Virus record (IMG/VR): IMGVR_UViG_3300047352_000137
Span: 1-48,881 of that record
Reading direction: 5' to 3' (one strand)
DNA: 48,881 bases
Source: a virus
Below the pieces are notes generated by a model. That model ran no database searches and was not told the DNA's origin. It worked only from the letters and a program-made list of their open reading frames with translations. The position numbers and the translations under genes are program-made. Positions 9,448 to 48,322 of this stretch are shown here, one piece after another; the first letter of the stretch is position 1, and each line of letters starts with the position of its first letter.

Positions 9448-9448
9448 A

Positions 9449-9922
9449 ATGGCGGAAACAAAAGCAAGCGCACGTTCATCCCGTGATTCGCAGTCACACG
9501 ATAATCAGACTCGCAGAAAACCATGGCGACCTGTTCGCTCATTGGAGACTCCCACACCACCGCCGGGTTATACCTATCGGTGGATCAGGGAGTCGATGTT
9601 GGGACAAGAAGATCGAGCTAATGTCTCGCGTCGAATTAGGGAAGGGTGGGAGCTCGTAAGAGGGACTGATCTTCCTGAAGAATGGCGTTCTTTACCGACG
9701 ATGGACAATGGGCGGCACGAAGGCGTGGTTTACAACGAAGGGTTGCTATTAGCGAAGATCCCTAACGAGACGGTTGAAGAGCGGAGAGCCTATTATCAGG
9801 CTAAAAGCAAAGAGGCCACTGATGCGTTGGACAACACCATGTTCAACGAGACCCGTGGTGATAGCCGTTATGTTAAATACGATCCTCAACGCGATAGCAA
9901 CGTCACATTTGGACGTAGATAG
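9449..9922 (+). CDS. Conserved head-cluster protein of unknown role
   Basis: About 157 residues from ATG 9449 (MAETKASARS), two bases after the scaffold stop, with GAGAGGCAAG as binding site. After a polar N-terminus the motif RRKPWRPVRSLETPTPPPGY leads to YRWIRESMLGQEDRANVSRRIREGWELVR. I recall this Trp/Pro/Arg pattern in marine phage genomes beside the capsid gene, without an assigned function. The C-terminus is charged and helical. It may be a minor head or head-completion protein, from position only. Confidence 0.65.
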   Translation: MAETKASARSSRDSQSHDNQTRRKPWRPVRSLETPTPPPGYTYRWIRESMLGQEDRANVSRRIREGWELVRGTDLPEEWRSLPTMDNGRHEGVVYNEGLLLAKIPNETVEERRAYYQAKSKEATDALDNTMFNETRGDSRYVKYDPQRDSNVTFGRR

Positions 9923-9934
9923 AGGTAATTACAA

Positions 9935-10519
9935 ATGGCGAATAAAGACGCTGCATTTGGAATGAAGCCGGTCAGAATGATCGGTGGCGCACCTTATTCT
10001 GGTGGCTCAAGTCGATATCGTATTGCTGCGAACTATGGAACATCCATTTTTCAAGGCGATATGGTCGCTCAAGTCACTGGTGGTACGGTGGAAGTTCACG
10101 CTGACGGAGGCACTGTGCCTATCGTTGGCGTTTTCAACGGTTGTCAGTACACCGATCCGACTTCGGGCGAGCAGGTGTTCAGCAACTACTACCCTGCAAG
10201 CACCAACGCTTCAGACATCATCGCTTTCATCATTGATGATCCGAATGTTGTTTACGAAGTGCAGGCTGATGACACATTCCCGGTCGCTGATCTTTTCGGC
10301 AACTTCGATATCGTGTACACCAGTGCTGGCAGCACACAAACTGGCATTTCGGGAGCTGAGCTGGACGTAACCACTGGTGCGACAGCAACGACCCTGCCAA
10401 TCAAGGCGATTGACATCTCGCAAGACCCGAACAACGACGACGTTGCATCGGCGAACACTAACGTGTTGGTGGTCATTCAAAACTCAATCTTCGGCGTTAA
10501 AGGCGCTGGCTTAGCATAG
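9935..10519 (+). CDS. Probable capsid decoration or head protein
   Basis: A 194-residue beta-rich, Gly/Thr/Asp-rich protein starting MANKDAAFGMKPVRMIGG. Low lysine content and many alternating hydrophobic residues suggest a barrel or jelly-roll fold. It sits 11 bases before the major capsid gene, with binding site AGAGGTAA. Position and composition fit a decoration or head-stabilising protein. No domain can be named with certainty. Confidence 0.6.
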   Translation: MANKDAAFGMKPVRMIGGAPYSGGSSRYRIAANYGTSIFQGDMVAQVTGGTVEVHADGGTVPIVGVFNGCQYTDPTSGEQVFSNYYPASTNASDIIAFIIDDPNVVYEVQADDTFPVADLFGNFDIVYTSAGSTQTGISGAELDVTTGATATTLPIKAIDISQDPNNDDVASANTNVLVVIQNSIFGVKGAGLA

Positions 10520-10530
10520 GGAGTTAAATA

Positions 10531-11448
10531 ATGGCTATTTCAAGAGCACAACTAGCTAAAGAGCTAGAGCCGGGTCTGAACTCGCTTTTTGGCATGTCTT
10601 ACGACAGTTATGACCGCGAGTACGAAGAAATCTTTGCTATCGAAGACTCACAGCGAGCCTTTGAAGAAGAGGTTTTGATCACTGGTTTCGGTGGAGCACC
10701 GACCAAAACTGAAGGCCAAGGCGTACAATTCGACAACGCTTCTGAGTCTTATACCGCTCGTTACACGCACGACACCGTTGCGTTGGCTTTCGCTTTGACC
10801 GATGAAGCCGTAGAGGACAACCTTTACGACTCACTGGGCAAGCGATATGTGAAGGCTTTGGCCCGATCTATGGCTAACACCAAGGAAGTAAAAGGCGCTG
10901 ACGTATTGAACAATGCGTTTGATACCAACTTCACTGGCGGTGACGGCGTAACATTGATCAACACGGCACACCCTCTAGCGGGTGGCGGCACCGCTGCAAA
11001 CCGTGCGACATCAATGGCTGACTTGAACGAAACGTCTTTGGAAGATGCGCTGATCGACATCAGCACGTTTACCGATGACAAGGGTCTAACGATCTCTGTT
11101 CAAGCTACCAAGCTGGTTGTTCCGCCTCAGTTAGTGTTTGTTGCTGACCGTATCCTGAACTCAACTTTGCGTTCTGGTACTGCCGATAACGACATCAACG
11201 CTGTACGCAACACGGGTGTATTGCCCGGTGGCTATACGGTCAATCATTACCTGACTGACCCTGACGCCTTCTTCCTGCTAACTAGCGTTACTGACGCTGG
11301 CGAAGGCTTGAAGATGTTCCAGCGTACTGCGATGGAGACCACGATGGAGCCAGACTTTACGACTGGCAACATCCGTTACAAGGCCCGTGAGCGTTACAGC
11401 TTCGGCTTTAGTGACTGGCGCGGCATCTACGGCTCACAAGGCGCGTAG
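10531..11448 (+). CDS. Major capsid protein
   Basis: A 305-residue protein. It has the features of an HK97-fold coat protein: an N-terminal helical arm (AQLAKELEPGLNSLFGMSYD), an extended loop region rich in Gly and Thr, a spine-helix-like segment with LALTD-type residues, and a C-terminal P-domain strand ending ARERYSFGFSDWRGIYGSQ. That last pattern resembles Mu-like gpT and related coat proteins. It follows portal, scaffold and decoration genes and is closed by a strong terminator, as expected for the most expressed gene. The binding site is GGGAGTTAAATA. Confidence 0.85.
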   Translation: MAISRAQLAKELEPGLNSLFGMSYDSYDREYEEIFAIEDSQRAFEEEVLITGFGGAPTKTEGQGVQFDNASESYTARYTHDTVALAFALTDEAVEDNLYDSLGKRYVKALARSMANTKEVKGADVLNNAFDTNFTGGDGVTLINTAHPLAGGGTAANRATSMADLNETSLEDALIDISTFTDDKGLTISVQATKLVVPPQLVFVADRILNSTLRSGTADNDINAVRNTGVLPGGYTVNHYLTDPDAFFLLTSVTDAGEGLKMFQRTAMETTMEPDFTTGNIRYKARERYSFGFSDWRGIYGSQGA

Positions 11449-11463
11449 ATACCAAGCAAAAAG

Positions 11464-11489
11464 AAAGGGGGCTTATGCCCCCTTTTTTT
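11464..11489 (+). terminator. Intrinsic terminator after the capsid gene
   Basis: A perfect 9-bp stem, AAAGGGGGC/GCCCCCTTT, with a TTAT loop is followed by a run of seven T. The A-rich 5' flank makes it work in both directions. It therefore closes the head operon on the plus strand and also the minus-strand gene that ends at 11497. Confidence 0.9.
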
Positions 11490-11496
11490 GTGCCGC

Positions 11497-12333
11497 TTAT
11501 GCGGCCTCCTCGTCTAGATTGACGGCCTTGGTGGGCCGCTTGTAGAAACCAAACTTGTCATCGTCACGCGATGGCTCAACCGCCGCCATGAAGGTGACTC
11601 GCGCTCCGCGACTAGCGTGTAAGCTGCTAGGAATGCTGCCCCACACCTTGAAGCCACGGTCATCCTTGACCAGCATCTTCCAAGTGTCGCCGTAGTAACT
11701 TTCTTGCAGTTTGATAGCGAGAATTTCGCCAGTGATAGCAACGCGACCAGTCGGGCATGGCTCAGCGGCATCTAGCTCAGCTTGTTCAGCAGCGCGTTGC
11801 GCTGCGGCGGCTGCAACCTTCGGAGCCTCAAGGTAAGACTCGATAGCGTCAGCCACGTCCTTGCAACGCTCGTCAATGTAGACGTACACCATTTGGTCGC
11901 CATCACGATCCTCGAAAGGCTTGCCGGTGTGAATGCCAACAATGCCCGACAGCGCCTCGATGACGGCATCAGCTCGCTCGACGGTTATGTAGGTGACGCG
12001 GCGTAGCGGGGAGCCAGTACGTTTCTCAGCGTAGTCGCTGCAAAACAGCTTGATCTGCTTGCTCCAAGGCAAAAATTCTCCAGCCATGAACACACCATCA
12101 AGCACGGCTTGCTCCTCGCCGTCAGAGTTGTAGAGACACCATTCCCAGTAGTAGTTGTCGCAAGGCGCGTGCATACCAGCGGCGCTGACCGTTGGCTCCA
12201 TGCCGTGGTTCGTGTCGTGGTTCTTTTGTATGCGAGCGTCTCGCGCAGCTCGTGCTGCCGCAGATCGAGCGTCGAACTGCTCGATGCGAGTGGTTACGGT
12301 TTGAACGAGTTGTTGTAAATCTTTCATCATCAT
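11497..12333 (-). CDS. Isolated minus-strand protein, early-type, unknown function
   Basis: About 278 residues. The start is one of three consecutive ATG codons (12333, 12330, 12327) just after GGAAA; the longer frame upstream covers the promoter and is rejected. The N-terminus is helical and Ala/Arg-rich. The middle has CDNYYWEWCLYNSDGEE and a cluster of aromatic/acidic residues. An Ala/Glu-rich linker (about 200-225) leads to a C-terminal segment (about 225-278, GRVAITGEILAIKLQES, WKMLVKDDRGFKVWGSIP) that looks like a small beta barrel, possibly an OB fold. An OB fold suggests nucleic-acid binding, as inference. It has its own promoter and terminator inside the late region, like a moron. 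Confidence 0.7.
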   Translation of the reverse strand: MMMKDLQQLVQTVTTRIEQFDARSAAARAARDARIQKNHDTNHGMEPTVSAAGMHAPCDNYYWEWCLYNSDGEEQAVLDGVFMAGEFLPWSKQIKLFCSDYAEKRTGSPLRRVTYITVERADAVIEALSGIVGIHTGKPFEDRDGDQMVYVYIDERCKDVADAIESYLEAPKVAAAAAQRAAEQAELDAAEPCPTGRVAITGEILAIKLQESYYGDTWKMLVKDDRGFKVWGSIPSSLHASRGARVTFMAAVEPSRDDDKFGFYKRPTKAVNLDEEAA

Positions 12334-12354
12334 TTTCCGTTGTTGTTGGCGTTT

Positions 12355-12382
12355 ATTATAATGATTCCGTGTCGATGTGCAA
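12355..12382 (-). promoter_or_regulatory. Sigma70-like promoter with shared CGACACGG element
   Basis: On the minus strand TTGCAC is followed by a 16-base spacer, ATCGACACGGAATCAT, and a perfect TATAAT. It drives the gene ending at 11497, with a leader of about 15 bases. The first part of the spacer is shared with the promoter at 46079 and, with changes, with those at 46016 and 32356, so this is probably an early promoter. Confidence 0.8.
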
Positions 12383-12465
12383 CTATTTATACACCAAAAA
12401 GTGCAAATAAATGAACTTTTTTTTGGTAGATCGTTGGCATACACTGAGGCTCTGAGATAAACCCA

Positions 12466-12526
12466 GCCCCAGCGACTGGCTCAGCAGACGTTACGAAGAC
12501 TCTGGGGCGAATCCTTTCGTAAGAGG
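12466..12526 (+). promoter_or_regulatory. Possible H-type pseudoknot leader overlapping a ribosome-binding site
   Basis: Stem 1 pairs GCCCCAG (12466-12472) with CTGGGGC (12502-12508), 7 of 7. Stem 2 pairs TTACGAA (12491-12497) with TTCGTAA (12516-12522), 7 of 7. The strands interleave, so both can form only as a pseudoknot, with loops of 18, 4 and 7 bases. The last strand runs into the AAGAGG binding site of the gene at 12534. This is a candidate translational switch or autoregulatory site. Found by eye; chance pairing is not excluded. Confidence 0.5.
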
Positions 12527-12533
12527 TAATACC

Positions 12534-13043
12534 ATGTCACAGACAACATTTTCAGGCCCAGTCAGATCGCTGGGCGGCTTCATCACCGCAGGCGTAAACA
12601 GCAGTGTCAGTCTGTCCGCAGACACCACGCTGACCGTGGCGGCTCATGCTGGCAAGATCATTCTGCTCAACGATGCAGACGGCAAGTTCACTTTGCCAAC
12701 AATCGATGCAACCACACCCGCAGATCCAACGTCGCCAAACCAAGGCAACAACATCGGCGCGTCTTTCTTTTTCTACATTGAAACCGCAGCCACTGACTTG
12801 GATATCAAGACCGATGGCACCGACAAGTTCAAAGGCGCAGCTATGGTTGCTGTAGATGACGGCTCTAAAAAAGCTTTTTTCCCAGCCGCATCAAATGACG
12901 TAATGACCTTCAATGGCTCAACCAAAGGTGGTTTGGTCGGTAGCGTCATTCAGGTGACTGCAATCGACTCTATAAGCTACCTCGTTCATAACACTTTGTT
13001 ACTTGGTTCAGGAACGATTGTTACGCCTTTCGCTGACGCTTAA
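12534..13043 (+). CDS. Structural protein, beta-rich
   Basis: A 169-residue protein, MSQTTFSGPVRSLGGF at the start, Gly/Ser/Thr-rich and almost free of positive charge. It is typical of phage surface or decoration proteins. I recall the opening TTFSGPVRSLGGF from marine phage virion proteins. It is the first gene of the second late block, after the minus-strand insertion, and has an elaborate leader (12466-12526). The binding site AAGAGG is 7 bases before ATG. A role as a decoration or head-fibre protein is likely but not proven. Confidence 0.65.
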   Translation: MSQTTFSGPVRSLGGFITAGVNSSVSLSADTTLTVAAHAGKIILLNDADGKFTLPTIDATTPADPTSPNQGNNIGASFFFYIETAATDLDIKTDGTDKFKGAAMVAVDDGSKKAFFPAASNDVMTFNGSTKGGLVGSVIQVTAIDSISYLVHNTLLLGSGTIVTPFADA

Positions 13044-13065
13044 TCCACAAAATAGGAGATAGGCA

Positions 13066-13470
13066 ATGGCAGATGCAGTAACAAGCCAAACCATTCAAGA
13101 CGGTGAACGCAAAGCCGTCTTGAAGTTCACCAATGCCTCTGACGGCACGGGTGAATCGGCAGTCAAAAAAGTAGACGTTTCGGCACTGACCAGCAACTCG
13201 GCTGGTTTGTCATGCAACCGCGTGACGATCAACAAGATTTGGTGGCAGTGTACCGGGATGTCAGTCAAGATTGAGTTTGACGCAACCAGCAACGTGTTGG
13301 CTATCGGACTTAGCGAGGATAGCAATGGATATCACGACTACAGTGATTTCAGTGGCATACCAAACAACGCTGGCTCTGGCATCACGGGCGATCTTGACTT
13401 CACCACTGTTGGTCACGGCAGCGGTGACACTTATATGATTGTGTTGGAATTGATCAAGTCTTATGGCTGA
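13066..13470 (+). CDS. Structural protein, beta-sandwich-like
   Basis: A 134-residue protein preceded by AGGAGATAGGCA. It is Gly/Ser/Asn/Asp-rich with alternating beta-strand patterns (KAVLKFTNASDGTGES, INKIWWQCTGMSVKIEFD, YMIVLELIKSYG). No catalytic motif is seen. It lies with the neighbouring structural protein at 12534 and overlaps the next gene by 8 bases. Probably a virion protein of the head or head-tail region. Confidence 0.6.
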   Translation: MADAVTSQTIQDGERKAVLKFTNASDGTGESAVKKVDVSALTSNSAGLSCNRVTINKIWWQCTGMSVKIEFDATSNVLAIGLSEDSNGYHDYSDFSGIPNNAGSGITGDLDFTTVGHGSGDTYMIVLELIKSYG

Positions 13471-13756
13471 TACAAGCGACGTAAAGAGAACGAAGTCGGG
13501 CAGACTCATCTATCGAGGTGAGTCTTTCCCCGGCTATAACCAGCAAAAAAGAACGCCCGGTGAGAACAAGAAGTTCGCGGTTCTAGCCAAAAAGGGCGAT
13601 CAGGTAAAGATTGTGCGTTACGGTGATCCGAACATGGAGATCAAGCGCGACAATCCAGAGCGTCGGCGCAACTTTCGTGCTCGCCACAACTGCGATGCGG
13701 TTCAGAAGAAGAAGGACGTATTCGCAGCTTCCTATTGGTCGTGCAAAAACTGGTGA
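13463..13756 (+). CDS. Small basic protein, conserved pattern
   Basis: A 97-residue, strongly basic protein. The pattern NKKFAVLAKKGDQVKIVRYGDPNMEIKR then RARHNCDAV and a C-terminal YWSCKNW is one I recognise as recurrent in phage and giant-virus proteins of unknown function (possibly the DUF5872 group; not checked). Two cysteines and a histidine near the end could bind a metal. Two further basic proteins in this block (16373 and 16728) appear to belong to related families, so they may act together. Confidence 0.65.
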   Translation: MADTSDVKRTKSGRLIYRGESFPGYNQQKRTPGENKKFAVLAKKGDQVKIVRYGDPNMEIKRDNPERRRNFRARHNCDAVQKKKDVFAASYWSCKNW

Positions 13757-13762
13757 TTTGAT

Positions 13763-14770
13763 ATGACTGTAATGTTCATGACCGACGCTGGTCGTAAGAC
13801 TGGTGATTCTAAAATTGACAGATTGGCGATGGAGTACGAAGACAAGTACGGCCAGCCTTTAACCGACGCTCAAATAGAAAGATTAGACCAGCTTTCTGGC
13901 TCCTCAGAATACGGTAATTATGCGATTGATACGTCAGGTTTTGCATCTGACGCGCCTTTTGGGAGTCCTCAAAGGGAATCTGAGCTTAATGCGTACATGA
14001 AAAATTTGCAGGACGAAAGAAATGCAAAGCGAGCAAATTTTACACTGGAAAATTTAGGCATTTCACCTGACCAGACTGGCTCACTTACACGGCCCATGGC
14101 TCCCCAAAATCCGATGCAGGGCGGTATCGGCGGTTTACTTGAGGCGCTCCAAGGGCAAATGAAGCAGATACCAAAGCCGCCAACCCAAAACCGTGGGATG
14201 GGTGATATACAAATCTCTCCGATAGAGCGAGGGCCAGACCCAAGGCTCATGGGCAACATGAGCTTTATAAATTTTGGTTCGTTGCCATTTGAAGAGCGCC
14301 TAAGAATTCGTCAAGAAGGTCTGAAAGCTATAGAAAATGAAGCTATCGGCTTACAACCCAAGCTGCCACCACAAATGCCAGACATGATGCAGCAGCTTCA
14401 AGAAGCGCTTAGGCAGAAGCAAATGGGTGGCGCTCGACCTAGACCGACGCCTACACCCCGTGGAGGCCCACTTGACTTGGGCGATATGATTGGAAGGCTT
14501 CAACAGCAAATTGAGCAAAGACGAGAACCGCCCCCCATGCAACAAAGACGAAGACCCCGTGGAGGTTTGTTTTCTCAGCTAAGCAGGAGCATCCCGCAGG
14601 ATAGAAGGGAGCAACGTATTTTTGCTGGTTTAGCCGATAAGATTCCACAAGATCGAAGAGTCAAGCCGATGGGCAGAAGCTTGTTGACGAAAGGCAGGGG
14701 TCGCCCAGACATGGAAGAGATTCGCAGACAAGTTATGCAAGGCATTAACGTGCGTGGGATTAGAATGTAA
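13763..14770 (+). CDS. Pro/Gln/Arg-rich virion-associated protein
   Basis: A 335-residue low-complexity protein. An acidic start (about 1-45) with two regular helices is followed by long Pro-, Gln-, Met- and Arg-rich stretches such as PMAPQNPMQGGIGGLLEALQ. The C-terminus is basic and contains two copies of a SIPQDRREQR/KIPQDRRVKP motif (about residues 275 and 295). Disorder is expected. Composition resembles internal or ejected virion proteins. The end overlaps the next ATG (TAATG). The function is unknown. Confidence 0.6.
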   Translation: MTVMFMTDAGRKTGDSKIDRLAMEYEDKYGQPLTDAQIERLDQLSGSSEYGNYAIDTSGFASDAPFGSPQRESELNAYMKNLQDERNAKRANFTLENLGISPDQTGSLTRPMAPQNPMQGGIGGLLEALQGQMKQIPKPPTQNRGMGDIQISPIERGPDPRLMGNMSFINFGSLPFEERLRIRQEGLKAIENEAIGLQPKLPPQMPDMMQQLQEALRQKQMGGARPRPTPTPRGGPLDLGDMIGRLQQQIEQRREPPPMQQRRRPRGGLFSQLSRSIPQDRREQRIFAGLADKIPQDRRVKPMGRSLLTKGRGRPDMEEIRRQVMQGINVRGIRM

Positions 14771-16362
14771 TGGCTGAATCCAATGACCTACAGGCTGCGT
14801 TAGACGAGTACGGAAGCTCAGCTTCGCCATACTCGGCTTTAGATCGGTATTTGATGCAGCAGCCCGTCTACGACAGAGGGCCAAGGGAAGCGCCAGCAGC
14901 GCCCACTCTGCGTACTTTGGAAGCTATTACGCCCGACACTGAAGACATGCTGGCAAGCCAGTATGAGCGGATTATGGAAGAGCAGCGAGCCGCTGATGAA
15001 GCCGCTACCGCTGCTCGTCAAACCGAGATTGACAGTCTGCGAGACTTGTTGCGTCAAGAGCTATCTACCTCAGAAGACGCTGCATTGGCGCAACGCTCTG
15101 ATATTACGAAGGCGCTCGAAGGCCGTATTGCGGACATGCAAAAAGAGGTTGACGCTGAGACACTCGATCTGCGCCAAGCCGGTTTAGATGAAAGAGCGGC
15201 TCTGGCTCGTCAAATAGAAGAAGGCGACAGACTGGTTCGTCAGGCTCAAGAGGCTGCGATTGGGGATTTGAGTGACCGTCAGGGTTCTTTGATGGGAGAC
15301 TTAAAAGGGCGGATAGCTTCTCTTTCTGGTGATTTATCTGACATAAATAGCGTCATTGACGAAAATTACTCTGAGCTTTTGCAGATGCAGGAGTCATCCG
15401 CAGGGGCTACGCAAGATCAAATTTCTGGCATCTCGCAAGAGCTAGAGTCGCTCGGCGGTACGCAAGACGAAATTAGTGCGCTCAATCAGCAGCTCGAAAC
15501 ACTGTATACAGACGTAGAGTCTGGTAACGCAGCCCAGTCTGAAACGATTAGGAATGAAACCGCGAACTTGATCGCTGGTTTGGAACAGCAAATCGGTGGT
15601 TTGGCAGACAATCTTGGTGCCTTGCCGATAGATGCAATTCAGTCACAGCTTGCTTCTGTGAACGACCAAACAGCTCAGTTTCAGCAGGCGGTGGATTCCG
15701 CTACAGGGCAAAGAGCGGAGCTGGCCTCGCGCATTGACGCTTTACAAGCCGCTGGCTTGACGCAAGACGATTTAGCCGCAGCGATCAACCCGATATCTCA
15801 GCAAAGGCAAGAAGCAATCTCCGCTGCTGTGAACCCAATTCAAGCTCAAATAGAGGCGCTTCGAGGTGAAATACCTCAACAGGTAGACACCGAGGCGCTA
15901 CGCAAACAGATCACCGATGACATCATGGCTCAGATGGCGAGCCAACAGCCTCCTGCAACCACGACTCCGCCAATCACGGTTGGCTCTGCCGAAGGACAAC
16001 AAGGTATCGTCGTTGAGCCAGAAGGCGATATATATTCTAATCTTGGCCCATCATCATCGGAGGCCGCAGGGTTCAATCCTTACGGCGGCGGCTCCGCAGC
16101 CGCTATGAACGTGTCGGACGGGCAAGCAGACGCAATGGGATTGTTTGATGATTCAGCTCCCACTGGCGGAAGCTTGAGAGCAAGAGGCCAGCTCGGTTAT
16201 CAACGACGCGATCAGTTTGACCCAAGGGGTCAGCAACAGTTTAATCAAACACCGGGCGTGAGAGACACCGTGGCTGTTCCGACCATGCGAAGCAATCAGA
16301 TGACTGGCCGAGTTGGTGACTTTATTCCAGATATGCGCGACATAATGCAAGTAGGCCAGTGA
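14770..16362 (+). CDS. Long coiled-coil virion protein
   Basis: A 530-residue protein whose middle (about 55-400) is an uninterrupted Gln/Glu/Leu/Ala-rich coiled coil with repeated blocks of the type AGLTQDDLAAAINPISQ. It is followed by a Gly/Pro-rich, flexible C-terminus. There is no membrane segment, so it is not a classical tape measure. In a podovirus a protein like this may span the head-tail channel or be ejected. It is coupled to the genes on both sides. Confidence 0.6.
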   Translation: MAESNDLQAALDEYGSSASPYSALDRYLMQQPVYDRGPREAPAAPTLRTLEAITPDTEDMLASQYERIMEEQRAADEAATAARQTEIDSLRDLLRQELSTSEDAALAQRSDITKALEGRIADMQKEVDAETLDLRQAGLDERAALARQIEEGDRLVRQAQEAAIGDLSDRQGSLMGDLKGRIASLSGDLSDINSVIDENYSELLQMQESSAGATQDQISGISQELESLGGTQDEISALNQQLETLYTDVESGNAAQSETIRNETANLIAGLEQQIGGLADNLGALPIDAIQSQLASVNDQTAQFQQAVDSATGQRAELASRIDALQAAGLTQDDLAAAINPISQQRQEAISAAVNPIQAQIEALRGEIPQQVDTEALRKQITDDIMAQMASQQPPATTTPPITVGSAEGQQGIVVEPEGDIYSNLGPSSSEAAGFNPYGGGSAAAMNVSDGQADAMGLFDDSAPTGGSLRARGQLGYQRRDQFDPRGQQQFNQTPGVRDTVAVPTMRSNQMTGRVGDFIPDMRDIMQVGQ

Positions 16363-38203: not shown

Positions 38204-38371
38204 ATGAAAAAGTTTGAGTGGGACGATGACGCGAGCGAAGATGAGAACTTCAGGCAGTGGGCTATGATGAATGCAGATGAACGCGAGAGCGTAGGGCAAG
38301 CGCCTCTTTCGGAGGAAGAGGCGCGGGGGTTGTTCAACGAGCTGAAGGAGAGCGGATGGCTGACGATGTAA
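38204..38371 (+). CDS. Small acidic protein before terminase small subunit
   Basis: A 55-residue protein with site AGGAGAACGAG. It is strongly acidic (EWDDDASEDENF, LSEEEARGLFNEL) and mostly helical. It overlaps TerS by 16 bases. It may regulate TerS or bind a basic partner. No family recognised. Confidence 0.6.
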   Translation: MKKFEWDDDASEDENFRQWAMMNADERESVGQAPLSEEEARGLFNELKESGWLTM

Positions 38372-38886
38372 AACGTAAGCCGGGTAGGCCGAGGAAAGAG
38401 CGCAAGGAGTTGGTGGAGACACCAAAGGCTTTCCTTGCAGATGAAGAGGCTGGCATCACAGACATGCAAGCGGCTTTCGTGTGGCATTACACGGAAGGCG
38501 CGTGTGGGCAGACGGAAGCAGCGCGAAGAGCAGGGTTCTCGTTTCCTGCGAGCGCAGCGACTAAGATGCTCAATGGCAACGACTTCCCAAAGGTCACGCG
38601 AGCGGTTCGAGTCAAGCAGGATGAGATGCGTGAGAAGTATGCGATCACGCCGCAGAAGACAGGAGCAATGCTGTGGAAGATAGCCGAGACTTCATTCGAG
38701 ACGGGAGCGTACAACGCTGCGGTTAGCGCAGTGAAAGAGTTGAACCAGCTCGCTGGCCTCACGATCCACCGCAGTCAGAACCTGAACATCAACGCAGACT
38801 TGCAGAAGATGACGAAGGAAGACATCAAGCACCGGCTTAACGAGCTGCTGGGCGTGGACGGGGAGATGAGCGACAAAGACTACTAA
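38356..38886 (+). CDS. terS: Terminase small subunit (TerS)
   Basis: A 176-residue protein. The start is basic (VKRKPGRPRKERKE), an AT-hook-like GRPRK. The middle, DMQAAFVWHYTEGACGQTEAARRAG then SAATKMLNGNDFPKVTRAVRVKQ, is the DNA-binding helix-turn-helix core typical of Terminase_2-type TerS (T-AA-x-RAG ... PxV-x-x-AV pattern). EKYAITPQKT and a C-terminal oligomerisation helix follow. It recognises the packaging site and feeds TerL. Unusually, TerL is far away at 3410. Confidence 0.8.
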   Translation: MADDVKRKPGRPRKERKELVETPKAFLADEEAGITDMQAAFVWHYTEGACGQTEAARRAGFSFPASAATKMLNGNDFPKVTRAVRVKQDEMREKYAITPQKTGAMLWKIAETSFETGAYNAAVSAVKELNQLAGLTIHRSQNLNINADLQKMTKEDIKHRLNELLGVDGEMSDKDY

Positions 38887-39372
38887 CCTCGTCGGTTTGA
38901 CGCTATCGCAGAATGAACATCGTTCTGGCCCCGCCTCCCGCCCAGCCCCTCAAAATCTCGGAAAAATGCCGATATTATGTTAAATGGGATAAAAAGCTAA
39001 TAAAAACAAAGGCTTACGCATTTATGTTAGTGAGCACTAACTTGCTTGTATTGGCCTACCCTGCTCAGAGGCGACACACGTCTAGGCCGCTAGGCTGCGC
39101 GACCTTGGTTTTCTTCTCTCTGAGCGCCTGTACGCGCCTCTCAGCCGATTCCGTGCGCGGCAGTAGGAACCCTATAGGGTCGGAAAAAGCCTGAGAGATC
39201 GGCCTGTGGCGCGACCCCCGTACACCCCTATATAGCGAGCGCGGCGAGCGCGATAGCTATAGCAAGGTTTTACGCATTCAGTATCCAAAAATATGTATGC
39301 CGAATCTCTTGCGTTTGACCTTGGCTTGAAATGATCTCATTATGCGCCGTAACCACATTCGGGCAGTTCCTG
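38887..39372. other. Long non-coding segment rich in inverted repeats
   Basis: This is the longest gap in the window. It has GTTAGTG-AG-CACTAAC (39026-39041), GCTCAGAG (39063) with CTCTGAGC (39118), CTCTCAG (39138) with CTGAGAG (39191), the palindrome ACCCTATAGGGT (39169-39180), and direct GAGCGCG repeats (39236-39251). A 93-residue frame in it lacks coding character. It lies straight after TerS, so a packaging site is one candidate; an origin, attachment site or operator is another. Confidence 0.55.
39026..39041. promoter_or_regulatory. Operator-like inverted repeat
   Basis: Perfect 7-bp arms GTTAGTG and CACTAAC are separated by AG. The pattern is like operators of TetR-type repressors, perhaps of the host. 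It sits in an AT-rich stretch that could hold a promoter. No gene for a matching regulator was found in the window. Confidence 0.45.
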
Positions 39373-40152
39373 ATGTATATGTCGCCGTTTCAAAATTCAA
39401 GATCCGCACTCCTTGGCTCACGTCGGCCAATGATGCAGCAGCATATTTTCCGCCCCCAACCTGCGTTCTTGCAACCGCAACTTTTTTTGCGAAACACTAT
39501 GGCTCGAGATCGCGCTAGTATAGTGCCGCAACCCACACAATTCGGTCAGCTTCAAGGCAGCTCTGGGTCTAGCCCGCCATCGTTGGAAGAAGTGCTCGCG
39601 GAACGCGGTTTCATGATGCCCAAAGAGCCGACAGGTGGGATGACTCAAGATATGGCGGGGCTAGGAATAGACCCAGTGACAGGCAACATGATCACTGGCT
39701 CTAGCAGTATGCGTGGGTATTACAACGCATTAAATGAAATGTACGCACAAAACCCAGAGGCTCTGGAGATCGCAAAACAGTACAAGTCCGATCCATTTCA
39801 ATTTGGTGGCAAACCGTCCCCTACTGTTTCTCTGGGCAGTCAACTCACTCAGACGATTCAGCCGCCGTTACAACCACCTATTGAAATGATTCAGCGACCC
39901 GGCGGTTCTGTTGGTTTACCCGCAGAAAGACAAGCTCAACTAGAAACGCAAAGGCGACAGCCTGATTACGGTCAACAAGTTCAAGAAATGCAGGCGATGA
40001 TGCGCGAGATGATGCAGATGATCTCTGCGCTGAGTAACAGGGGCGGTTTCGGCGGAGGATACGGAGGCGGTTTTGGTGGTTACTCTCCGCGCCAGCAGAT
40101 GATGTTCGGCGGTATTGGTTCGATCCCTATGTCTAGGGGCATGTTCTACTAG
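39373..40152 (+). CDS. Gly/Met/Gln-rich virion-type protein
   Basis: About 259 residues if started at ATG 39373; ATG 39331 and 39379 are alternatives and none has a strong binding site. A proline/glutamine-rich start (MMQQHIFRPQPAFLQPQLFL), a Ser/Pro middle and a C-terminal tail rich in Gly, Tyr and Met (FGGGYGGGFGGYSP) suggest disorder or a sticky surface. The composition is like the internal proteins of the late region, so it may be a virion protein encoded apart from them. A terminator-like stem follows. Confidence 0.55.
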   Translation: MYMSPFQNSRSALLGSRRPMMQQHIFRPQPAFLQPQLFLRNTMARDRASIVPQPTQFGQLQGSSGSSPPSLEEVLAERGFMMPKEPTGGMTQDMAGLGIDPVTGNMITGSSSMRGYYNALNEMYAQNPEALEIAKQYKSDPFQFGGKPSPTVSLGSQLTQTIQPPLQPPIEMIQRPGGSVGLPAERQAQLETQRRQPDYGQQVQEMQAMMREMMQMISALSNRGGFGGGYGGGFGGYSPRQQMMFGGIGSIPMSRGMFY

Positions 40153-40290: not shown

Positions 40291-40701
40291 ATGGCAGATT
40301 CACGCACCAAAGGAGCCGCTTTCGAGCGCGACATCGTGAAGCGCATCAATGCGTTTGCCGATCAACACGCCCTTGGTTTCACCTGCAAGCGTAACCTCGA
40401 CCAATATCAAACCGCTGACCTTTGTGACATCCAGATCCCGCGACATTCGATTGAGTGCAAGGCGTACAAGTCTGGCTGGTGGTATGCACCAGCTTGGTGG
40501 GATCAGGTTTGTGCGGCTTGTGGCGACAACACGCCCGTTTTGATATACAAGTTCAACAAAAAAGCGATCAGGGTATGCCTGCCGCTGTATTCGATTAACC
40601 AAAATATGGCGCGAGATAACTCTCGGACAGCGGTTATCACTCTTGACGAGTGGTTGGAGCTGTTGAAAGAGAGCTTTGACGGCCAACGAGAGGCTGCGTA
40701 G
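40291..40701 (+). CDS. Holliday-junction-resolvase-like PD-(D/E)XK nuclease
   Basis: A 136-residue protein with the archaeal Hjc-type pattern: E12 in KGAAFERDIVKRI, then D46 in TADLCDIQIP and E55-C-K57 in HSIECKAYKS. This matches the E...D...ExK catalytic set of small phage nucleases. WWYAPAWWDQVCAACG follows, with a Cys pair. It probably resolves branched DNA before packaging. The start codon ATG 40291 lacks a clear binding site, and TAAACT just before could be a -10 box of a leaderless message. Confidence 0.75.
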   Translation: MADSRTKGAAFERDIVKRINAFADQHALGFTCKRNLDQYQTADLCDIQIPRHSIECKAYKSGWWYAPAWWDQVCAACGDNTPVLIYKFNKKAIRVCLPLYSINQNMARDNSRTAVITLDEWLELLKESFDGQREAA

Positions 40702-42092
40702 TGGCTGGCATGGACGATATCGACATTTTTGGTGTTCCAGTCACTGGCTCGACCCGTGATCGTGATTTAGACCGTCTTGAGAGCATGGTTCGAGGCCGAT
40801 ACATCGATCCGCTTGAGCGTCAGGCTAAGGACATTGTCAAAAATCAGGTTGTTAAGGCGCTCAGTGGTATGGAAGGGGTCACTGGGGCTGCGATAGCTCA
40901 AGTTGTTGCGCTTGCTGACTCTCAAGACCCGAATGACAAGCTGGTTTTCAATCAAATCGTGTCTCGTTTGAATTTGCCGGTAAATATCCGGCGTATGGGC
41001 GACGATTACATGGCATCTAAGCGGTTTGAGGGTGCTTTGGGCCGTGATTCGAGCGTTGACGTGATGGCTTATCGTCCAGACGAGGGTGAAACCCAGTACA
41101 GCTTGGGTCTTCAGAAGCGTTTTCCCAATCTTTTAGGTAAAAATTCGTCTGCTGACGTGTCAGCGCGGGTTTCTACGATGGGTGACCCTGAAATTAGGGC
41201 GAGATTTGAGAAAAGATTCGCTGAAGGCGGTGAAGTTGACATTTTTGACGAGCCTGTAGGCCAAATGAACCGCCGCCAACAGCCAAAAAACGTATCAAGG
41301 CTGACGCCAGCGCAACTTGCGAACATCGGGGCGGCTTTTGCAGACCCTTTGGGCATGATCGACATCACGGGTGAGTACCCTGAGTTCCCCGCAGCGGGCG
41401 TTTCTACTGCTGAGATGGTTATGGAAGGGCCAAGATCGCCTAGTTTGATGGAAAATTTGCGCGAAGGCGACTATGGGGCAGCGGCGCTTCAGGGTGTGGG
41501 AGTAATTCCCGTCGCTGGAGGCGCTGCGAGGGCCATTCGAGGCGTTGCGAAGGGTGCAGACCGTCTTGAGAAGGCTAAAAAGGCTGGTTTTGACACCGAT
41601 ACGGTGTATTACCACGCGACGGATAAGTTTGCAGACTCAGAATCTGGGGAATTTGCCCAGTTGCGTCCTTCAGCAAAGGGAAAACTGGGGCCGGGCATTT
41701 ATTTATCGCCTGATGCCAGTTACACGCAGAAATATATCCGTCGATCTTACAGATCAGACACTGAGGAGCCGCCTTTCGGTGAGGGTGCTCGCATTTTGCC
41801 GGTTTTTGTGCGCGGAAAGGTGGGCACTAGAGAAGATTTTGCTGAGGCCGTCGATAGCATTAAGAAGAGCGCATCAGACAAAACAGATTTCCAAACCATC
41901 AAGCGCAAAGCCCAAGAAAAAATGTCAGACGATGGGTTTGCAGGGTTCAAGGTGCAGGATGAGCTTGTCATTTTCGACCCCAAAAACATCCGCTCGGTGA
42001 ATGCCGAGTTTGAAGACCTTGATTCGCCTGAATTGTTGAAGGCGAAGGGTGGGGCCATAGACATCAACGACATCGATATTTTTGCGAGATAG
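40701..42092 (+). CDS. ADP-ribosyltransferase-like (ART) protein
   Basis: A 463-residue protein from GTG 40701. The C-terminal domain (about 300-440) resembles polyvalent-protein ARTs: TVYYHATDKF (H305), GPGIYLSPDASYTQKYI (Y334), RILPVFVRGKV, and DELVIFDPKNIRSVNAEFE (E421). The H, Y and E positions match an H-Y-E NAD+-binding triad. The N-terminal part is helical, with a Gly/Ala-rich stretch (about 255-285, AALQGVGVIPVAGGAARAI) that may be membrane-active. Short motifs DIDIFGVPV, VDIFDEPV and IDIFAR occur at residues 7, 179 and 457. It could modify host proteins after injection. The function is inferred from motifs only. Confidence 0.7.
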   Translation: MAGMDDIDIFGVPVTGSTRDRDLDRLESMVRGRYIDPLERQAKDIVKNQVVKALSGMEGVTGAAIAQVVALADSQDPNDKLVFNQIVSRLNLPVNIRRMGDDYMASKRFEGALGRDSSVDVMAYRPDEGETQYSLGLQKRFPNLLGKNSSADVSARVSTMGDPEIRARFEKRFAEGGEVDIFDEPVGQMNRRQQPKNVSRLTPAQLANIGAAFADPLGMIDITGEYPEFPAAGVSTAEMVMEGPRSPSLMENLREGDYGAAALQGVGVIPVAGGAARAIRGVAKGADRLEKAKKAGFDTDTVYYHATDKFADSESGEFAQLRPSAKGKLGPGIYLSPDASYTQKYIRRSYRSDTEEPPFGEGARILPVFVRGKVGTREDFAEAVDSIKKSASDKTDFQTIKRKAQEKMSDDGFAGFKVQDELVIFDPKNIRSVNAEFEDLDSPELLKAKGGAIDINDIDIFAR

Positions 42093-42095
42093 TTC

Positions 42096-44882
42096 ATGAG
42101 CATTAAAAAAGCAATCATCAGGGCGCAGGTCAACGATCTTGGCTTGTACAGCAAAGCCGAAGATGTTGCCGAGAAGATGCGGCAAACGAAGGGCCGTGGT
42201 GACGATTTCAAGAGATATTTTATCAAGCAGGGGGTGAAGGCCGAAGAGCTGGAAGCCCTTGGCTTAAACGATCTATTCCGCCAAGAAAGGGTCACTCAGC
42301 AAGAAATTTTGGATCGTATCGACTCAAATCGCATTGAAATGGAAGAAAACGTCAGTACAGGGCCAGCGGAAGGCTCTTATGACTTTCAATACGACGAAGA
42401 AGACATCGATATTGAAGAAGCGTATGGCTCCGATTACCAAAGGGAGCGAGCGGAGGAGCTTCTTGATGACATGCTTGACGTTTTTCTGCGTCGAGAAAAC
42501 ATAGAAGACTACGCAAGAAGATACTCCAATGATCAAGACGAGTTTTTAGAACTTGTAGCTCGGATGGAGCGAGTTATTGATGGCGAAGCGGATTATGAAA
42601 CGCTGCCTAGAGCAATCCGCAACGACTTGTTAAACGACGCAGAAAACGAAGCCATTGTCGAATACGAGCAAAATCCAATCCGCAGAATTACAGTTCAGGT
42701 CAATGATCAAAACGCTGAGACAGAAAACATAGGCGACATGCCCGGCGCGGCTTTCAGCTATTCGCTCGTCGGCAATGAAGACTTAGGCTTTACCCTAGAT
42801 GGACGAGAAAGGAACAGCGTCCCAGACAACATCCTGCGCCAGATAGATAACGCAAACATTTATGACCCCGACGAAGTGGTCGTGCAGCTTCGAGGTATCG
42901 CAGAGGAATACGGCGACATAGAGGGACTTGCTAAGGGCGAGACACGATGGGGCGAGTACACCCTAGACGGCGGCGAGAACTATCAAGAAGCTCGGCTTTC
43001 TTTGCCCAGTAAAGGCAAAAAGAGGTTTCGCGAGGGTGTTCACTTCCCTGATGACATCAACAACGTCTTCCACATTCGCACCAAAGACCGTAAAGGGCCG
43101 ATGGGCGAAAATATTTTGTATGTGGAAGAGGTGCAGTCTGACTGGGCGCAGCAAGGTCGCAAGCAGGGATTCAGAAGCCCAGAGGTCGAAAAACAGGCGC
43201 AAGAGGCCGCGAGGCAACTCTTAGAGGAGGCAGGCCCACTTCTGGACGAATTGACCCTGAACGACAATGTTCGTAACAGACCATCCGAGGGTGCGGGTTT
43301 CGCGAGGACGTTGACGGAGCTTTTGGAAGCTGGAAACCAAGAGCGGCTTGCTCGAATAGATTTATCAAGTAACGAATTTATTGAAGCTGACGAGAGAGAC
43401 AAGTTTACAGAGTATCAACGCTCTTCCGCCTTGGATGCTGCTGGGAATATCAAAACTGCGCTGCAAGCCTCTGAACAAAGGGCAAGACAAGCGGCAAGCA
43501 ACATACTCGATCAGGAATATCTCGACGGGTTTACGCAAGAGCAAAAGTTAGAGGCGCTTACTAATTTCATCATTCAGCGGAGGCACCCGGTAAACCTCCC
43601 CCAGATGGAACTAGACCTCATTAGGCGAAACATTCGGTCTGAAGTCGAGCAAACGCTGGAAGAAAAACCGGGTCGCGTTGATCAGATGTTGTTGAATGAA
43701 GCGCGTAAGCGCGGTGAACTGCCTAAAGACGCTTATAATGATATGTCAGGGCTTCAGTTTGATGGCACCAACCCGAAGTTCGAGGCAGCTCTCGTACAGG
43801 CGAAGAAAGAGCAGCGCGATTATTTAGCGGGTTTAGGCGTTGACCCGATGCTTTACTCAAAGCTGCAATCTGCGTTGGACAAGGCTGACCCAGAGGGCGC
43901 TAAGCTCAAAGCTGAACAAATGCAAAGGGGCAAAGCAGACGTAGCGCCATTTGTATTAGATACCCAGTCTTGGAACAAGCTGGCTATCAAATACATCTTC
44001 AAAAAGGCTGTTGAAGAAGGTTATGACGGCGTGAGCTTTGCGCCAGCAGACGCGCACATTGATCGCTGGGGCGACGAAGGCTTGCGGGTTCAATACGATG
44101 AAAACATACCAAGGGCCATCGATAAGGTTTTCGGCAAAGCGCCGATTATCCCGTCCAACCGACCAGAAACAATGGAGGTGGATGGTTACGAATCCCAGAT
44201 TTATCACCTAGACAACCTAACGCGGGACGGCGATAGCATCTACGAGAAGATGAAAGACCCAACCACTATGTTTGGCTTCGCCCCACTGCCGTTGGTGCTG
44301 CCGCAAGGTATCGCTGGTTTACAGGGTTTGTCTCCAGAGCAAGCAGAGGAGCAAGAGCGCAAGGTGCGCGAGCTTGAGCGCACATTCCCTGACGCCACGC
44401 CCAGCGAAAGGGCAGGCATACTCGACGCGCTCAAGGGCGCAGGCGAAGTCGCTTACGAGGGCTTATCTGACATGGTTATCGAGCCGTTCATGGGAATGAG
44501 CGGCGCTGAAGCTGCGTTTGAGATGGGTGCTACGCCAGAGCAAGCTGAAGCGGCTCGCAGGAGGGCCGCTGCGATGGTGGATTTCGAGACCTCATCACCG
44601 ACGGGAAGGCGCTACAAAGAGGCTGTGAAAGGCGGTCTGGGCGCTCTAGGCGAGTATTTGATGGGTGAGGGCGAGATGGGTCGTACAAGATCAGGTATGC
44701 CGATTGCACCCAGCCGCGACCCAGCTCAGTTCTTGTTCCAAGAAGCTTTGGTTCCCGCAGCGGAAGCTGTGACTGAGGGTGCTCTGGGCATAATCGGCTT
44801 AGACCCAAGAGACACGGCAGAGATGGAGCGAGTTCGACAAGAGGCTGCTAGGCCGTTCATCGAAGCCATACAGCCTATTTAG
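42096..44882 (+). CDS. Large polyvalent-type phage protein
   Basis: A 928-residue protein. The N-terminal AEDVAEKMRQTKGRGDDFKR and GVKAEELEALGL (about 20-58) match the start of a domain I know from giant phage proteins. The core region (about 285-360) has YTLDGGENYQEARLSLPS, HFPDDINNVFHIRTKDR and ILYVEEVQSDWAQQGRKQGF. A later part (about 612-660) has APFVLDTQSWNKLAIKY and EEGYDGVSFAPADAH. These blocks recur in polyvalent proteins, function unknown. The last 200 residues are Ala/Glu-rich. It is encoded right after the ART, three bases apart, so the two probably act together, perhaps as ejected proteins. Confidence 0.65.
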   Translation: MSIKKAIIRAQVNDLGLYSKAEDVAEKMRQTKGRGDDFKRYFIKQGVKAEELEALGLNDLFRQERVTQQEILDRIDSNRIEMEENVSTGPAEGSYDFQYDEEDIDIEEAYGSDYQRERAEELLDDMLDVFLRRENIEDYARRYSNDQDEFLELVARMERVIDGEADYETLPRAIRNDLLNDAENEAIVEYEQNPIRRITVQVNDQNAETENIGDMPGAAFSYSLVGNEDLGFTLDGRERNSVPDNILRQIDNANIYDPDEVVVQLRGIAEEYGDIEGLAKGETRWGEYTLDGGENYQEARLSLPSKGKKRFREGVHFPDDINNVFHIRTKDRKGPMGENILYVEEVQSDWAQQGRKQGFRSPEVEKQAQEAARQLLEEAGPLLDELTLNDNVRNRPSEGAGFARTLTELLEAGNQERLARIDLSSNEFIEADERDKFTEYQRSSALDAAGNIKTALQASEQRARQAASNILDQEYLDGFTQEQKLEALTNFIIQRRHPVNLPQMELDLIRRNIRSEVEQTLEEKPGRVDQMLLNEARKRGELPKDAYNDMSGLQFDGTNPKFEAALVQAKKEQRDYLAGLGVDPMLYSKLQSALDKADPEGAKLKAEQMQRGKADVAPFVLDTQSWNKLAIKYIFKKAVEEGYDGVSFAPADAHIDRWGDEGLRVQYDENIPRAIDKVFGKAPIIPSNRPETMEVDGYESQIYHLDNLTRDGDSIYEKMKDPTTMFGFAPLPLVLPQGIAGLQGLSPEQAEEQERKVRELERTFPDATPSERAGILDALKGAGEVAYEGLSDMVIEPFMGMSGAEAAFEMGATPEQAEAARRRAAAMVDFETSSPTGRRYKEAVKGGLGALGEYLMGEGEMGRTRSGMPIAPSRDPAQFLFQEALVPAAEAVTEGALGIIGLDPRDTAEMERVRQEAARPFIEAIQPI

Positions 44883-46412: not shown

Positions 46413-46642
46413 GCGCCCAAGCAAAGAAGGTTTTTTACAACCGAGTGCGCCGCACCTGCCTCAAGCACAACATCGATATCGTATACGATGGGATGCCCAA
46501 GGCAGTGTATGGCGTGGAGTTGGTCAAAGACGGTCAGGTGATGTTCGCTGACCGCAGTGCCGATAACATGCCGCTGGACATAAACTGGCAGCGGCTGCAC
46601 GAAGAGATGGCCGACTATGGCTATAAAGGCGGTGTGAAATGA
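46409..46642 (+). CDS. Small basic early protein
   Basis: A 77-residue protein starting at GTG 46409 (GTGA overlap). It contains KKVFYNRVRRTCLKHNIDIVYDG, a basic helix, then beta strands VYGVELVKDGQVMFADRS. It ends in DYGYKGGVK and overlaps the recombinase start (ATGA). No family recognised; a role with the recombinase is possible by coupling. Confidence 0.6.
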   Translation: MSAQAKKVFYNRVRRTCLKHNIDIVYDGMPKAVYGVELVKDGQVMFADRSADNMPLDINWQRLHEEMADYGYKGGVK

Positions 46643-47430
46643 GCGGTAACCCACTAAAGCAAATAAACAACATCTACGGCTACGTCCGCGTATCCACCGA
46701 CGAGCAGGTCAAGTCTGGCATCTCGCTGGAGACTCAGATGCAGCAGATCCGCGAGTTTGTGCGCGAGAAGTACAACCGTGAGGTGACCGAGTTCTTCGCA
46801 GACGAGGGCATCTCTGGCACCCATGCGGTGCTAGATCGACCCGCCAGCCGCGACATGACCGACGTGATCGATGAGCATGACGTGGTGATCTGCACTCGGC
46901 TTGACCGATTAAGCCGCTCCAGTTCTGACCTTCTTGGCTTGATCCCCGTGCTGCAAGACATTGGTATCACGATGTATTTTTGCGAGCAGTTTGGCGAGAT
47001 GCCGATTGTCTACCCAGATGCCGCCAAGTCTAAGGGCTTGGATGCCAAGTTCGATATGAACTCGATGGCGAACCAGATCATGCTGATGGTGTTATCAGCG
47101 GTTGCCGAGATCGAACACGCGACCATCAAGGATCGATTTGCCGCAGGTAAGCTCGATTGGGCCTCACGCGGCTACGCAATCGGCGGATCTGCGCCGTATG
47201 GCTTTAGGCACGAAGAGGTGAAGACTGGCAGCAAGACTCGCAAGAAGCTGGTTGAGGTGCCTGAAGAGCAGGTGGTGTTGAAGACGATCTACAAGCTGCA
47301 CAAGCGCGGCCTTGGCCCTCGCAAGATCGCTAAGCAGGTCAACAGTATGCACAACATACCTCCGCTCACGCACTCCAAGGTGCAGCGCATATTGAACCGC
47401 AAATTTCAGGGTGTCCCTAACGCAGCATAG
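46639..47430 (+). CDS. Serine recombinase (resolvase/invertase family)
   Basis: A 263-residue protein. The catalytic domain has YGYVRVSTDEQ with S19 as nucleophile and R17, then VICTRLDRLSRSSSDLLG with D89, R90 and R93. A long helix near 145-165 precedes a Recombinase-type domain (YAIGGSAPYGFRHEEV, about 174-190) and a C-terminal DNA-binding part (LGPRKIAKQVNSMHN). It lacks the long C-terminus of large integrases. It may integrate the phage, resolve concatemers or invert DNA. Tail-fibre genes follow, which favours a variation role, but no inverted sites were found. Confidence 0.8.
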   Translation: MSGNPLKQINNIYGYVRVSTDEQVKSGISLETQMQQIREFVREKYNREVTEFFADEGISGTHAVLDRPASRDMTDVIDEHDVVICTRLDRLSRSSSDLLGLIPVLQDIGITMYFCEQFGEMPIVYPDAAKSKGLDAKFDMNSMANQIMLMVLSAVAEIEHATIKDRFAAGKLDWASRGYAIGGSAPYGFRHEEVKTGSKTRKKLVEVPEEQVVLKTIYKLHKRGLGPRKIAKQVNSMHNIPPLTHSKVQRILNRKFQGVPNAA

Positions 47431-47462: not shown

Positions 47463-47606
47463 ATGACGGCTTTAGACGATATTGAAGAGGCCATCGAGAC
47501 GATGGAGGCTTCGCTTGCGACAGATTTCATGACGAATGCGGTGCGCGACATCATGCACACGGCGGTGCAGCGCCTGAAAGATGCCAAAGAAAAGCTGACT
47601 GACTGA
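47463..47606 (+). CDS. Small acidic protein before tail genes
   Basis: A 47-residue helical protein with site GGAGGTCATT. TALDDIEEAIETMEASLATDF and VRDIMHTAVQRLKDAKEKL form two amphipathic helices. Its TGA overlaps the next start (TGATG). It may be a fibre-assembly helper or anchor, from position only. Confidence 0.6.
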   Translation: MTALDDIEEAIETMEASLATDFMTNAVRDIMHTAVQRLKDAKEKLTD

Positions 47607-48322
47607 TGTCTCAGGAAGGTTGGGGTCGCGGCACATGGGGGCAGGGCGCTTGGGGAACCCCGCTTTCGATTGATGTAACGCCTACGGGACAGCAGGCGAC
47701 TGCTGGCGTGGGCGCTCTGACGGTTGACGCTGAAGCAAAAGTTACTTTAACAGGTCTTGCGATCACATCTGGCATCGGCGCTGTCACTGTAGATGCTGAA
47801 GCAAACGTCACGCCTACAGGTCAGGCAATCACATCAGGCGTTGGCGCTCTTACCGTAGATGCCGAAGCGAATGTTACGCCCACTGGCCAAGCGATTACGT
47901 CAAGCCTTGGATCGATACAAGTGGTTGCAGGCGCTATCGTGCAGCTCACAGGACAGTCGATCACGTCTGGCCTTGGTGCGCCGACCACCGATGCAGAGGC
48001 CAATGTCACGCTCACAGGTCAGGGCATCGCGTCTGGGCTAGGAACCCCTGCCGCCAGAACGGTAAACAACGTCTTTGTTGACGGCCAGCAGATTAACTCG
48101 GCCATTGGTGACGCAACTACGGTTGCAGGCGCAATTGTTCAGATTACTGGCTTGTCAATGGTTGCAAGTGTCGGTGATATTCTGGTATGGGGCGAGATAG
48201 ACACCAACCAAGACCCGTCCTACAATCCAGTCAGCACAACACAATCTGCGAGCTACTCGGCTATTGATACCAGCCAGTCCGCAGGATACGAAGAAATTAA
48301 AGCTGGCCGTGATGCCGCATAA
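47606..48322 (+). CDS. Tail protein with 22-residue repeats
   Basis: A 238-residue protein. The start is EGWGRGTWGQGAWG, an aromatic glycine motif. Residues about 27-202 hold eight copies of a 22-residue beta repeat, TGQAITSGVGALTVDAEANV-like, in exact 22-residue phase. The end has SYNPV, SYSAI and GYEEI triads in a repetitive Asp/Gln/Ser/Tyr stretch. It is probably a fibre shaft or surface protein. It is coupled with the small gene upstream and precedes another fibre gene. One repeat copy is also found in the protein at 22953. Confidence 0.7.
   Translation: MSQEGWGRGTWGQGAWGTPLSIDVTPTGQQATAGVGALTVDAEAKVTLTGLAITSGIGAVTVDAEANVTPTGQAITSGVGALTVDAEANVTPTGQAITSSLGSIQVVAGAIVQLTGQSITSGLGAPTTDAEANVTLTGQGIASGLGTPAARTVNNVFVDGQQINSAIGDATTVAGAIVQITGLSMVASVGDILVWGEIDTNQDPSYNPVSTTQSASYSAIDTSQSAGYEEIKAGRDAA
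47684..48211 (+). repeat. Eight in-frame 66-base repeats in the tail gene
   Basis: Units of 66 bases start at 47684 and encode T-G-x(3)-T-S-G-x-G followed by variable residues. The first four units are most alike, and the last two have drifted (VDGQQINSAIG, TGLSMVASVG). This suggests growth by duplication, possible slip or recombination, and a periodic beta fold. Confidence 0.8.

What the first reader, a model, noticed from the sequence alone, without database searches (positions are those of the whole stretch)
40701..42092. ADP-ribosyltransferase-like phage protein with an H-Y-E pattern
The C-terminal domain has H305 in YYHATD, Y334 in GIYLSPD and E421 in DELVIFDP, spaced like polyvalent-protein ARTs. 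The rest of the protein is virion-like, so it might be injected and modify host targets at once. That job is inference; the pattern is read directly.
Basis: partly seen in the sequence, partly recalled or inferred. Interest (0 to 1): 0.75.

Follow-up and report, generated by a model that had tools for sequence, protein, structure and literature searches.

The report
Phage ADP-ribosyltransferase in swappable effector cassette
A marine bacterial virus carries a protein with a PARP-like ADP-ribosyltransferase domain of a known phage family, and close relatives of the virus carry different effector modules at the same spot behind the same short leader peptide.

Summary
The 463-aa ORF (40701-42092) has H305, Y334 and E421 exactly as described. 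Residues 303-435 match Pfam ART-PolyVal over the whole domain: below cut-off for this protein (E=1e-4 for the domain), above cut-off for relatives (down to 1e-15). A good-confidence model (pLDDT 84.5) places H in strand 1, Y in strand 2 and E at the start of the fifth main strand. Its best solved match is cyanophage A4 gp27, an ART-bearing protein of the capsid-internal pre-ejectosome; PARPs come next. So it is a polyvalent-protein ART, a known kind. H-Y-E is fixed in its own subclade, but many sister domains have H-F-V or H-F-T. "The rest is virion-like" is not shown directly: residues 1-183 match no virion family. Virion packaging and injection rest on family precedent (T4 Alt, A4 gp27, N4-like vRNAP). 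The gene lies between TerS/PDDEXK and a serine recombinase, outside the structural block. Unexpectedly, this site is a swap cassette. Phages with 92-94% identical flanking nuclease start the next gene with the same leader (MAGMDDIDIF) followed by at least eight different modules. The D-I-D-I-F-type motif recurs at module joints (115 found, about 3 expected).

The parts
40701..42092 (+). Finding ORF: 463-aa modular protein with C-terminal ART domain
   Evidence: GTG start overlaps the stop of the upstream PDDEXK gene; dN/dS well below 1
40701..40730 (+). Leader (V/M)AGMDDIDIF, shared by first cassette genes of related phages whatever module follows
   Evidence: 43 of 57 loci with the upstream PDDEXK
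40731..41249 (+). N-terminal module (res 11-183): helices 18-89 and a predicted beta-meander 95-183; no known family
   Evidence: found with other downstream modules in L015, L017, L099-L105
41226..41255 (+). Module joint, AEGGEVDIFD region
41256..41552 (+). Linker with a moderately hydrophobic stretch (AALQGVGVIPVAGGAARAI, res 261-279)
   Evidence: low confidence in model
41553..42026 (+). ART-PolyVal-like domain (res 285-442), H305, Y334, E421
42057..42089 (+). C-terminal joint motif INDIDIFAR
42096..44882 (+). Second cassette gene, 928 aa, polyvalent-type protein (weak match to 2564-aa phrog_7348), 3 nt after the ART gene
   Evidence: in L001 and L013 a single 1594-1707-aa gene with tandem ARTs occupies the site
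40291..40701 (+). PDDEXK nuclease (PF24608) directly upstream; conserved left border of the cassette
38356..38886 (+). Terminase small subunit-like gene upstream
46639..47430 (+). Serine recombinase (Resolvase N-terminal domain); conserved right border

Best explanation
The ORF encodes a polyvalent-type phage effector whose C-terminal domain is a PARP/Tox-ART-HYD2-like ADP-ribosyltransferase of the ART-PolyVal family. Shown: homology, predicted fold, and conservation of H305, Y334 and E421 in its subclade. Inferred: it binds NAD+ with H305 and Y334, uses E421 as the catalytic acid, and mono-ADP-ribosylates a host macromolecule early in infection. Inferred from family precedent: the protein is packaged in the virion (leader and N-terminal module as packaging or docking parts) and enters the cell with the DNA, as T4 Alt does. 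It occupies one slot of a cassette in which effector modules are exchanged between related phages at D-I-D-I-F joints.
For: Pfam ART-PolyVal over the whole domain, above cut-off in relatives with the same architecture (L001 56.7, L019 44.2, L018 32.5 bits). An iterated profile reaches the family prototype CBX87992.1 (E 8e-4; 1.5e-10 when searched alone). AF2 model pLDDT 84.5, pTM 0.79, with H305 in strand 1, Y334 in strand 2 and E421 opening the fifth main strand. Foldseek: A4 pre-ejectosome gp27 (E 9.5e-5), then PARP14, tankyrase-2, PARP12, PARP4 (E 0.06-0.2); 31 viral models at E<=1e-3, several annotated as PolyVal ARTs. 9k3a_B is A-4L gp27, and the ART profile hits its residues 1424-1596. 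H 22/22, Y 22/22, E 19/19 readable in the subclade. Purifying selection. Cassette. Literature: PMC5512222, PMC9503650.
Against: This protein alone is below the Pfam curated cut-off. PARP matches are individually weak. The published family motif is H-Y-D, and E421 is absent in about half of the sister domains, so the acid assignment is not certain. No virion-protein match in the N-terminal half; the gene is not in the structural block; the nearest phages with annotated genomes (related by capsid and terminase) lack the domain (HTVC027P was scanned whole, 023Pt_psg01, DSL-LC04 and CRP-902 only over the first 50 kb). No activity, target or virion data.
Confidence: 0.62

Rival explanations
1. An active ART made inside the cell after infection (not packaged), modifying host or phage proteins like T4 ModA/ModB, or acting on NAD+-based defence.
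For: The gene sits at the end of a replication/TerS operon, not in the structural block; no virion match in residues 1-300.
Against: Multi-module polyvalent architecture, fixed leader, and solved and prototype relatives in ejection proteins or vRNAP are typical of packaged effectors; TerS is itself a packaging gene.
Confidence: 0.22
2. A catalytically dead ART-fold domain kept as a binding or structural module, as in PARP13 or some ejectosome proteins.
For: Many sister domains at the same site lack Y and E (H-F-V, H-F-T); a solved relative is part of a structural pre-ejectosome.
Against: In this subclade H, Y and E are all retained down to about 50% identity, and clusters that lose Y also lack E, as expected for an active site.
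Confidence: 0.12
3. Toxin of a toxin-antitoxin or superinfection-exclusion pair.
For: The Tox-ART-HYD2 clade includes TA toxins (PMC5512222).
Against: No antitoxin, macrodomain or ADP-ribosylhydrolase found among the neighbours scanned; no PADLOC match; fused to other modules.
Confidence: 0.04

Closest known systems
ART-PolyVal (Pfam PF18760), Tox-ART-HYD2 clade of polyvalent proteins (Iyer et al. 2017, PMC5512222)
   Same: Full-domain profile match, H in strand 1, Y in strand 2, acid at strand 5, phage multi-module context, tandem copies in relatives
   Different: Acid is E in this subclade (family described as H-Y-D); this protein is below the Pfam cut-off; only one ART here
Anabaena phage A-4L gp27, pre-ejectosome protein (PDB 9k3a chain B)
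   Same: Best solved fold match; C-terminal ART motif found by the same profile
   Different: 1717-aa ejection protein encoded in the structural block; no similar N-terminal part or leader found
Roseovarius Plymouth podovirus 1 vRNAP-like polyvalent protein CBX87992.1
   Same: Family prototype, hit by the iterated profile; marine alphaproteobacterial phage
   Different: Fused to an N4-like RNA polymerase in a protein of more than 3500 aa
Octadecabacter Antarctic DB virus 2 gp6
   Same: Nearest annotated phage protein with the ART domain (28% identity over 151 aa; profile E 2e-25); lies between TerL and a tail tubular gene
   Different: Different N-terminal part; Q at the acid position
Phage T4 Alt
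   Same: Works-like model: packaged ART injected with DNA that modifies host RNA polymerase (PMC5512222)
   Different: R-S-E clade, a different ART family
PARP catalytic domains (PARP14, PARP12, tankyrase-2)
   Same: Next-best solved folds; same order of H, GIY/GxYF and acid motifs
   Different: Weak E-values (0.06-0.2); cellular proteins

Membership tests
ART-PolyVal (PF18760) | Profile match over the domain | tested here: met
   303-435 aligned to 9-135/140, E 1.1e-4 for the domain, 23.4 bits, below the 31.2 cut-off; relatives up to 56.7 bits
ART-PolyVal (PF18760) | ART fold (split beta-sheet) | tested here: met
   AF2 pLDDT 84.5; Foldseek to A4 gp27, PARPs and viral PolyVal ARTs
ART-PolyVal (PF18760) | H in strand 1 and Y in strand 2 | tested here: met
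   H305 in strand 297-307, Y334 in strand 332-336; H 81/81 and Y 47 (F 27) of aligned domains
ART-PolyVal (PF18760) | Acidic residue (D in the published description) in strand 5 | tested here: inconclusive
   E421 opens strand 421-424; D426 also conserved (47 D of 66); which is catalytic is not settled
ART-PolyVal (PF18760) | NAD+-dependent ADP-ribosyl transfer | not testable with these tools
   needs enzyme assay
Phage polyvalent protein (Iyer et al. 2017) | Two or more disparate domains in one polypeptide | tested here: met
   N-terminal module + ART here; up to three ARTs, a possible GNAT (sub-threshold) and other modules in relatives
Phage polyvalent protein (Iyer et al. 2017) | Encoded near virion/packaging genes | tested here: inconclusive
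   next to TerS and PDDEXK, but outside the structural block
Phage polyvalent protein (Iyer et al. 2017) | Packaged and injected | not testable with these tools
   no virion proteomics; solved relative is in a pre-ejectosome
T4 Alt/VIP2 (R-S-E) ARTs | R-S-E active site | tested here: not met
   H-Y-E at the aligned positions

The most novel reading that the evidence does not exclude
The locus is a phage counterpart of polymorphic toxins. A fixed MAGMDDIDIF leader (possibly a packaging or docking tag) is followed by interchangeable effector modules joined at GG-x-VDIF/DIDIF seams, so that near-identical marine phages deliver different ART types (H-Y-E, altered H-F-V, tandem) or other effectors into the host. 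The adjacent serine recombinase might help in the exchange.
Probability: 0.35. Interest if true: 0.72.

Novelty: new member of a known kind. Interest (0 to 1): 0.48.

Why it matters
It adds a well-supported H-Y-E member to the polyvalent-protein ARTs and ties the family by fold to a protein seen inside a phage pre-ejectosome. The cassette is a natural experiment: close phages with the same leader and flanks but different effector modules. It makes testable the suggestion of Iyer et al. (made for kinase-bearing loci) that polyvalent genes vary by cassette recombination as polymorphic toxins do, and it offers a candidate tag (DIDIF) for asking how such effectors are loaded into virions.

Tried and rejected
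PHROG, NCBIfam and PADLOC searches of the protein gave nothing. Full-length AF2 was poor outside the ART (pLDDT 52.1); its weak matches to transmembrane beta-barrels, probably from the 95-183 beta-meander, are not used as evidence. The genome-contig scan gave 125 pattern matches but no relative. Sequence search of the PDB gave only non-significant PARP12/PARP13/PARP3 hits. The idea that the two cassette genes are one broken gene was rejected: the same two-gene arrangement recurs in relatives (L010, L021, L024). An invertase-type switch was looked for: no convincing inverted repeats around the cassette, only direct repeats of the DIDIF-coding DNA in L001 and L013, so recombinase-driven exchange is not supported. 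The A4 structure paper (PNAS 2025) is not in the library; that its ART domain is resolved in 9k3a is inferred from the Foldseek match.

Full report
Check of the observation. The ORF, its coordinates and the three residues are as stated. The window is an IMG/VR virus record of 48,881 bases. Its major capsid protein and large terminase are about 60% identical to those of Pelagibacter phages HTVC023P and HTVC027P, phage 023Pt_psg01 and phage DSL-LC04, so it is a tailed phage of that mostly marine group, probably podovirus-like.

Family. Pfam ART-PolyVal matches residues 303-435 over nearly the whole profile (E 0.0014 for the protein, 1.1e-4 for the domain; 23.4 bits against a cut-off of 31.2). 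Twenty-seven close relatives were found in viral contigs and 72 ART-bearing loci with an ART alignment. Every one of 13 aligned members matches ART-PolyVal, the best at 1e-12, and L001, L013, L018 and L019 pass the curated cut-off. An iterated HMM recovers ART domains in 81 loci, including CBX87992.1, the prototype named by Iyer et al.. Membership therefore rests on intermediates as well as on the direct weak hit.

Fold and residues. The ART-only model has pLDDT 84.5 and pTM 0.79. H305 lies in strand 297-307, Y334 in strand 332-336 and E421 is the first residue of strand 421-424. The best solved match is 9k3a_B, cyanophage A4 pre-ejectosome (E 9.5e-5, prob 1.00), followed by PARP14, tankyrase-2, PARP12 and PARP4 at E 0.06-0.2. 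The viral library gives 31 matches at E<=1e-3, several named PolyVal ADP-ribosyltransferase. 9k3a_B is Anabaena phage A-4L gp27, 1717 aa, and the ART profile hits its residues 1424-1596 (LYHGT...GSGTYF).

Conservation of the triad. Y304 and H305 are invariant in 81 aligned domains; position 334 is Y 47, F 27, H 4, W 2. In the subclade of the window, H 22/22, Y 22/22 and E 19/19 readable, down to about 50% identity. Seven of 27 clusters at 50% identity are H-Y-E; clusters with F, H or W in place of Y have no E. The published description of the family is H-Y-D with D in strand 5. Whether E421 or the more widely kept D426 is the acid is open; strand position and co-occurrence with Y favour E421.

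Is it a virion protein? Residues 1-183 match no known family and were found only in this group of viral contigs. The gene follows VapE/primase, TerS and a PDDEXK nuclease, with a 3-nt gap to a 928-aa second gene that weakly resembles a giant multi-domain phage protein. It is not in the structural block. So packaging is inferred from family precedent: T4 Alt, ARTs in virion-embedded polyvalent proteins and N4-like vRNAP (PMC5512222, PMC9503650), and the solved A4 pre-ejectosome relative.

The cassette. In relatives, VapE, TerS, PDDEXK and the serine recombinase are kept (often 85-99% identical) while the genes between them differ: N-terminal module with or without ART, H-Y-E or H-F-V type ART, up to three ARTs in a 1594-1707-aa protein, one gene or two. 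In 43 of 57 loci with the upstream PDDEXK, the next gene begins with a DIDIF-type leader, in the close group MAGMDDIDIF, and the starts continue with at least eight different sequences. The motif [VI]D[IL]F occurs 115 times in 82 such proteins against 2.9 in shuffles, mostly just after a start or after a GG, some at the C-terminus. The sequences are related, so this count is not of independent events. Its codons differ between sites, but the DNA is also a direct repeat within L001 and L013, so both a protein-level role and use as a recombination seam remain possible. Iyer et al. raised cassette recombination as a possibility for kinase-bearing polyvalent loci; here the swapped states are seen.

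Function. Most likely an injected or early-acting ADP-ribosyltransferase aimed at a host macromolecule (0.62). The target is unknown. Rivals are a non-packaged host-takeover ART (0.22), a dead binding domain (0.12) and a toxin of a toxin-antitoxin pair (0.04).

Verdict. A real, well-supported new member of a known kind; the injection claim is plausible but unproven; the swap cassette with its leader is the more unusual part.

Noticed in passing
window 40701-42092; 57 loci with upstream PDDEXK: Fixed leader MAGMDDIDIF followed by at least eight different modules although the upstream nuclease is 92-94% identical in the closest group.
   Followed up: partly
L001:10001-14785, L013:10001-15121: One gene of about 1600-1700 aa replaces the two genes of the window and carries three tandem ART-like domains, two of them without the acidic residue at the E421 position.
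   Followed up: partly
window 47606-48322: ORF made of 66-nt (22-aa) imperfect tandem repeats, next to the serine recombinase; also in L001 (18468-19250).
   Followed up: no
window 39331-40152: ORF with a Gly-rich C-terminus (GGFGGGYGGGFGGYSP) present upstream of the cassette in some relatives and not detected in others.
   Followed up: no
L019:332-2692: A weak, sub-threshold GNAT acetyltransferase match between the N-terminal module and the ART, another possible swapped effector.
   Followed up: no
L074-L076 (2925-aa ORF at 7325-16099): DarB-like antirestriction polyvalent protein with an ART domain of this family.
   Followed up: no
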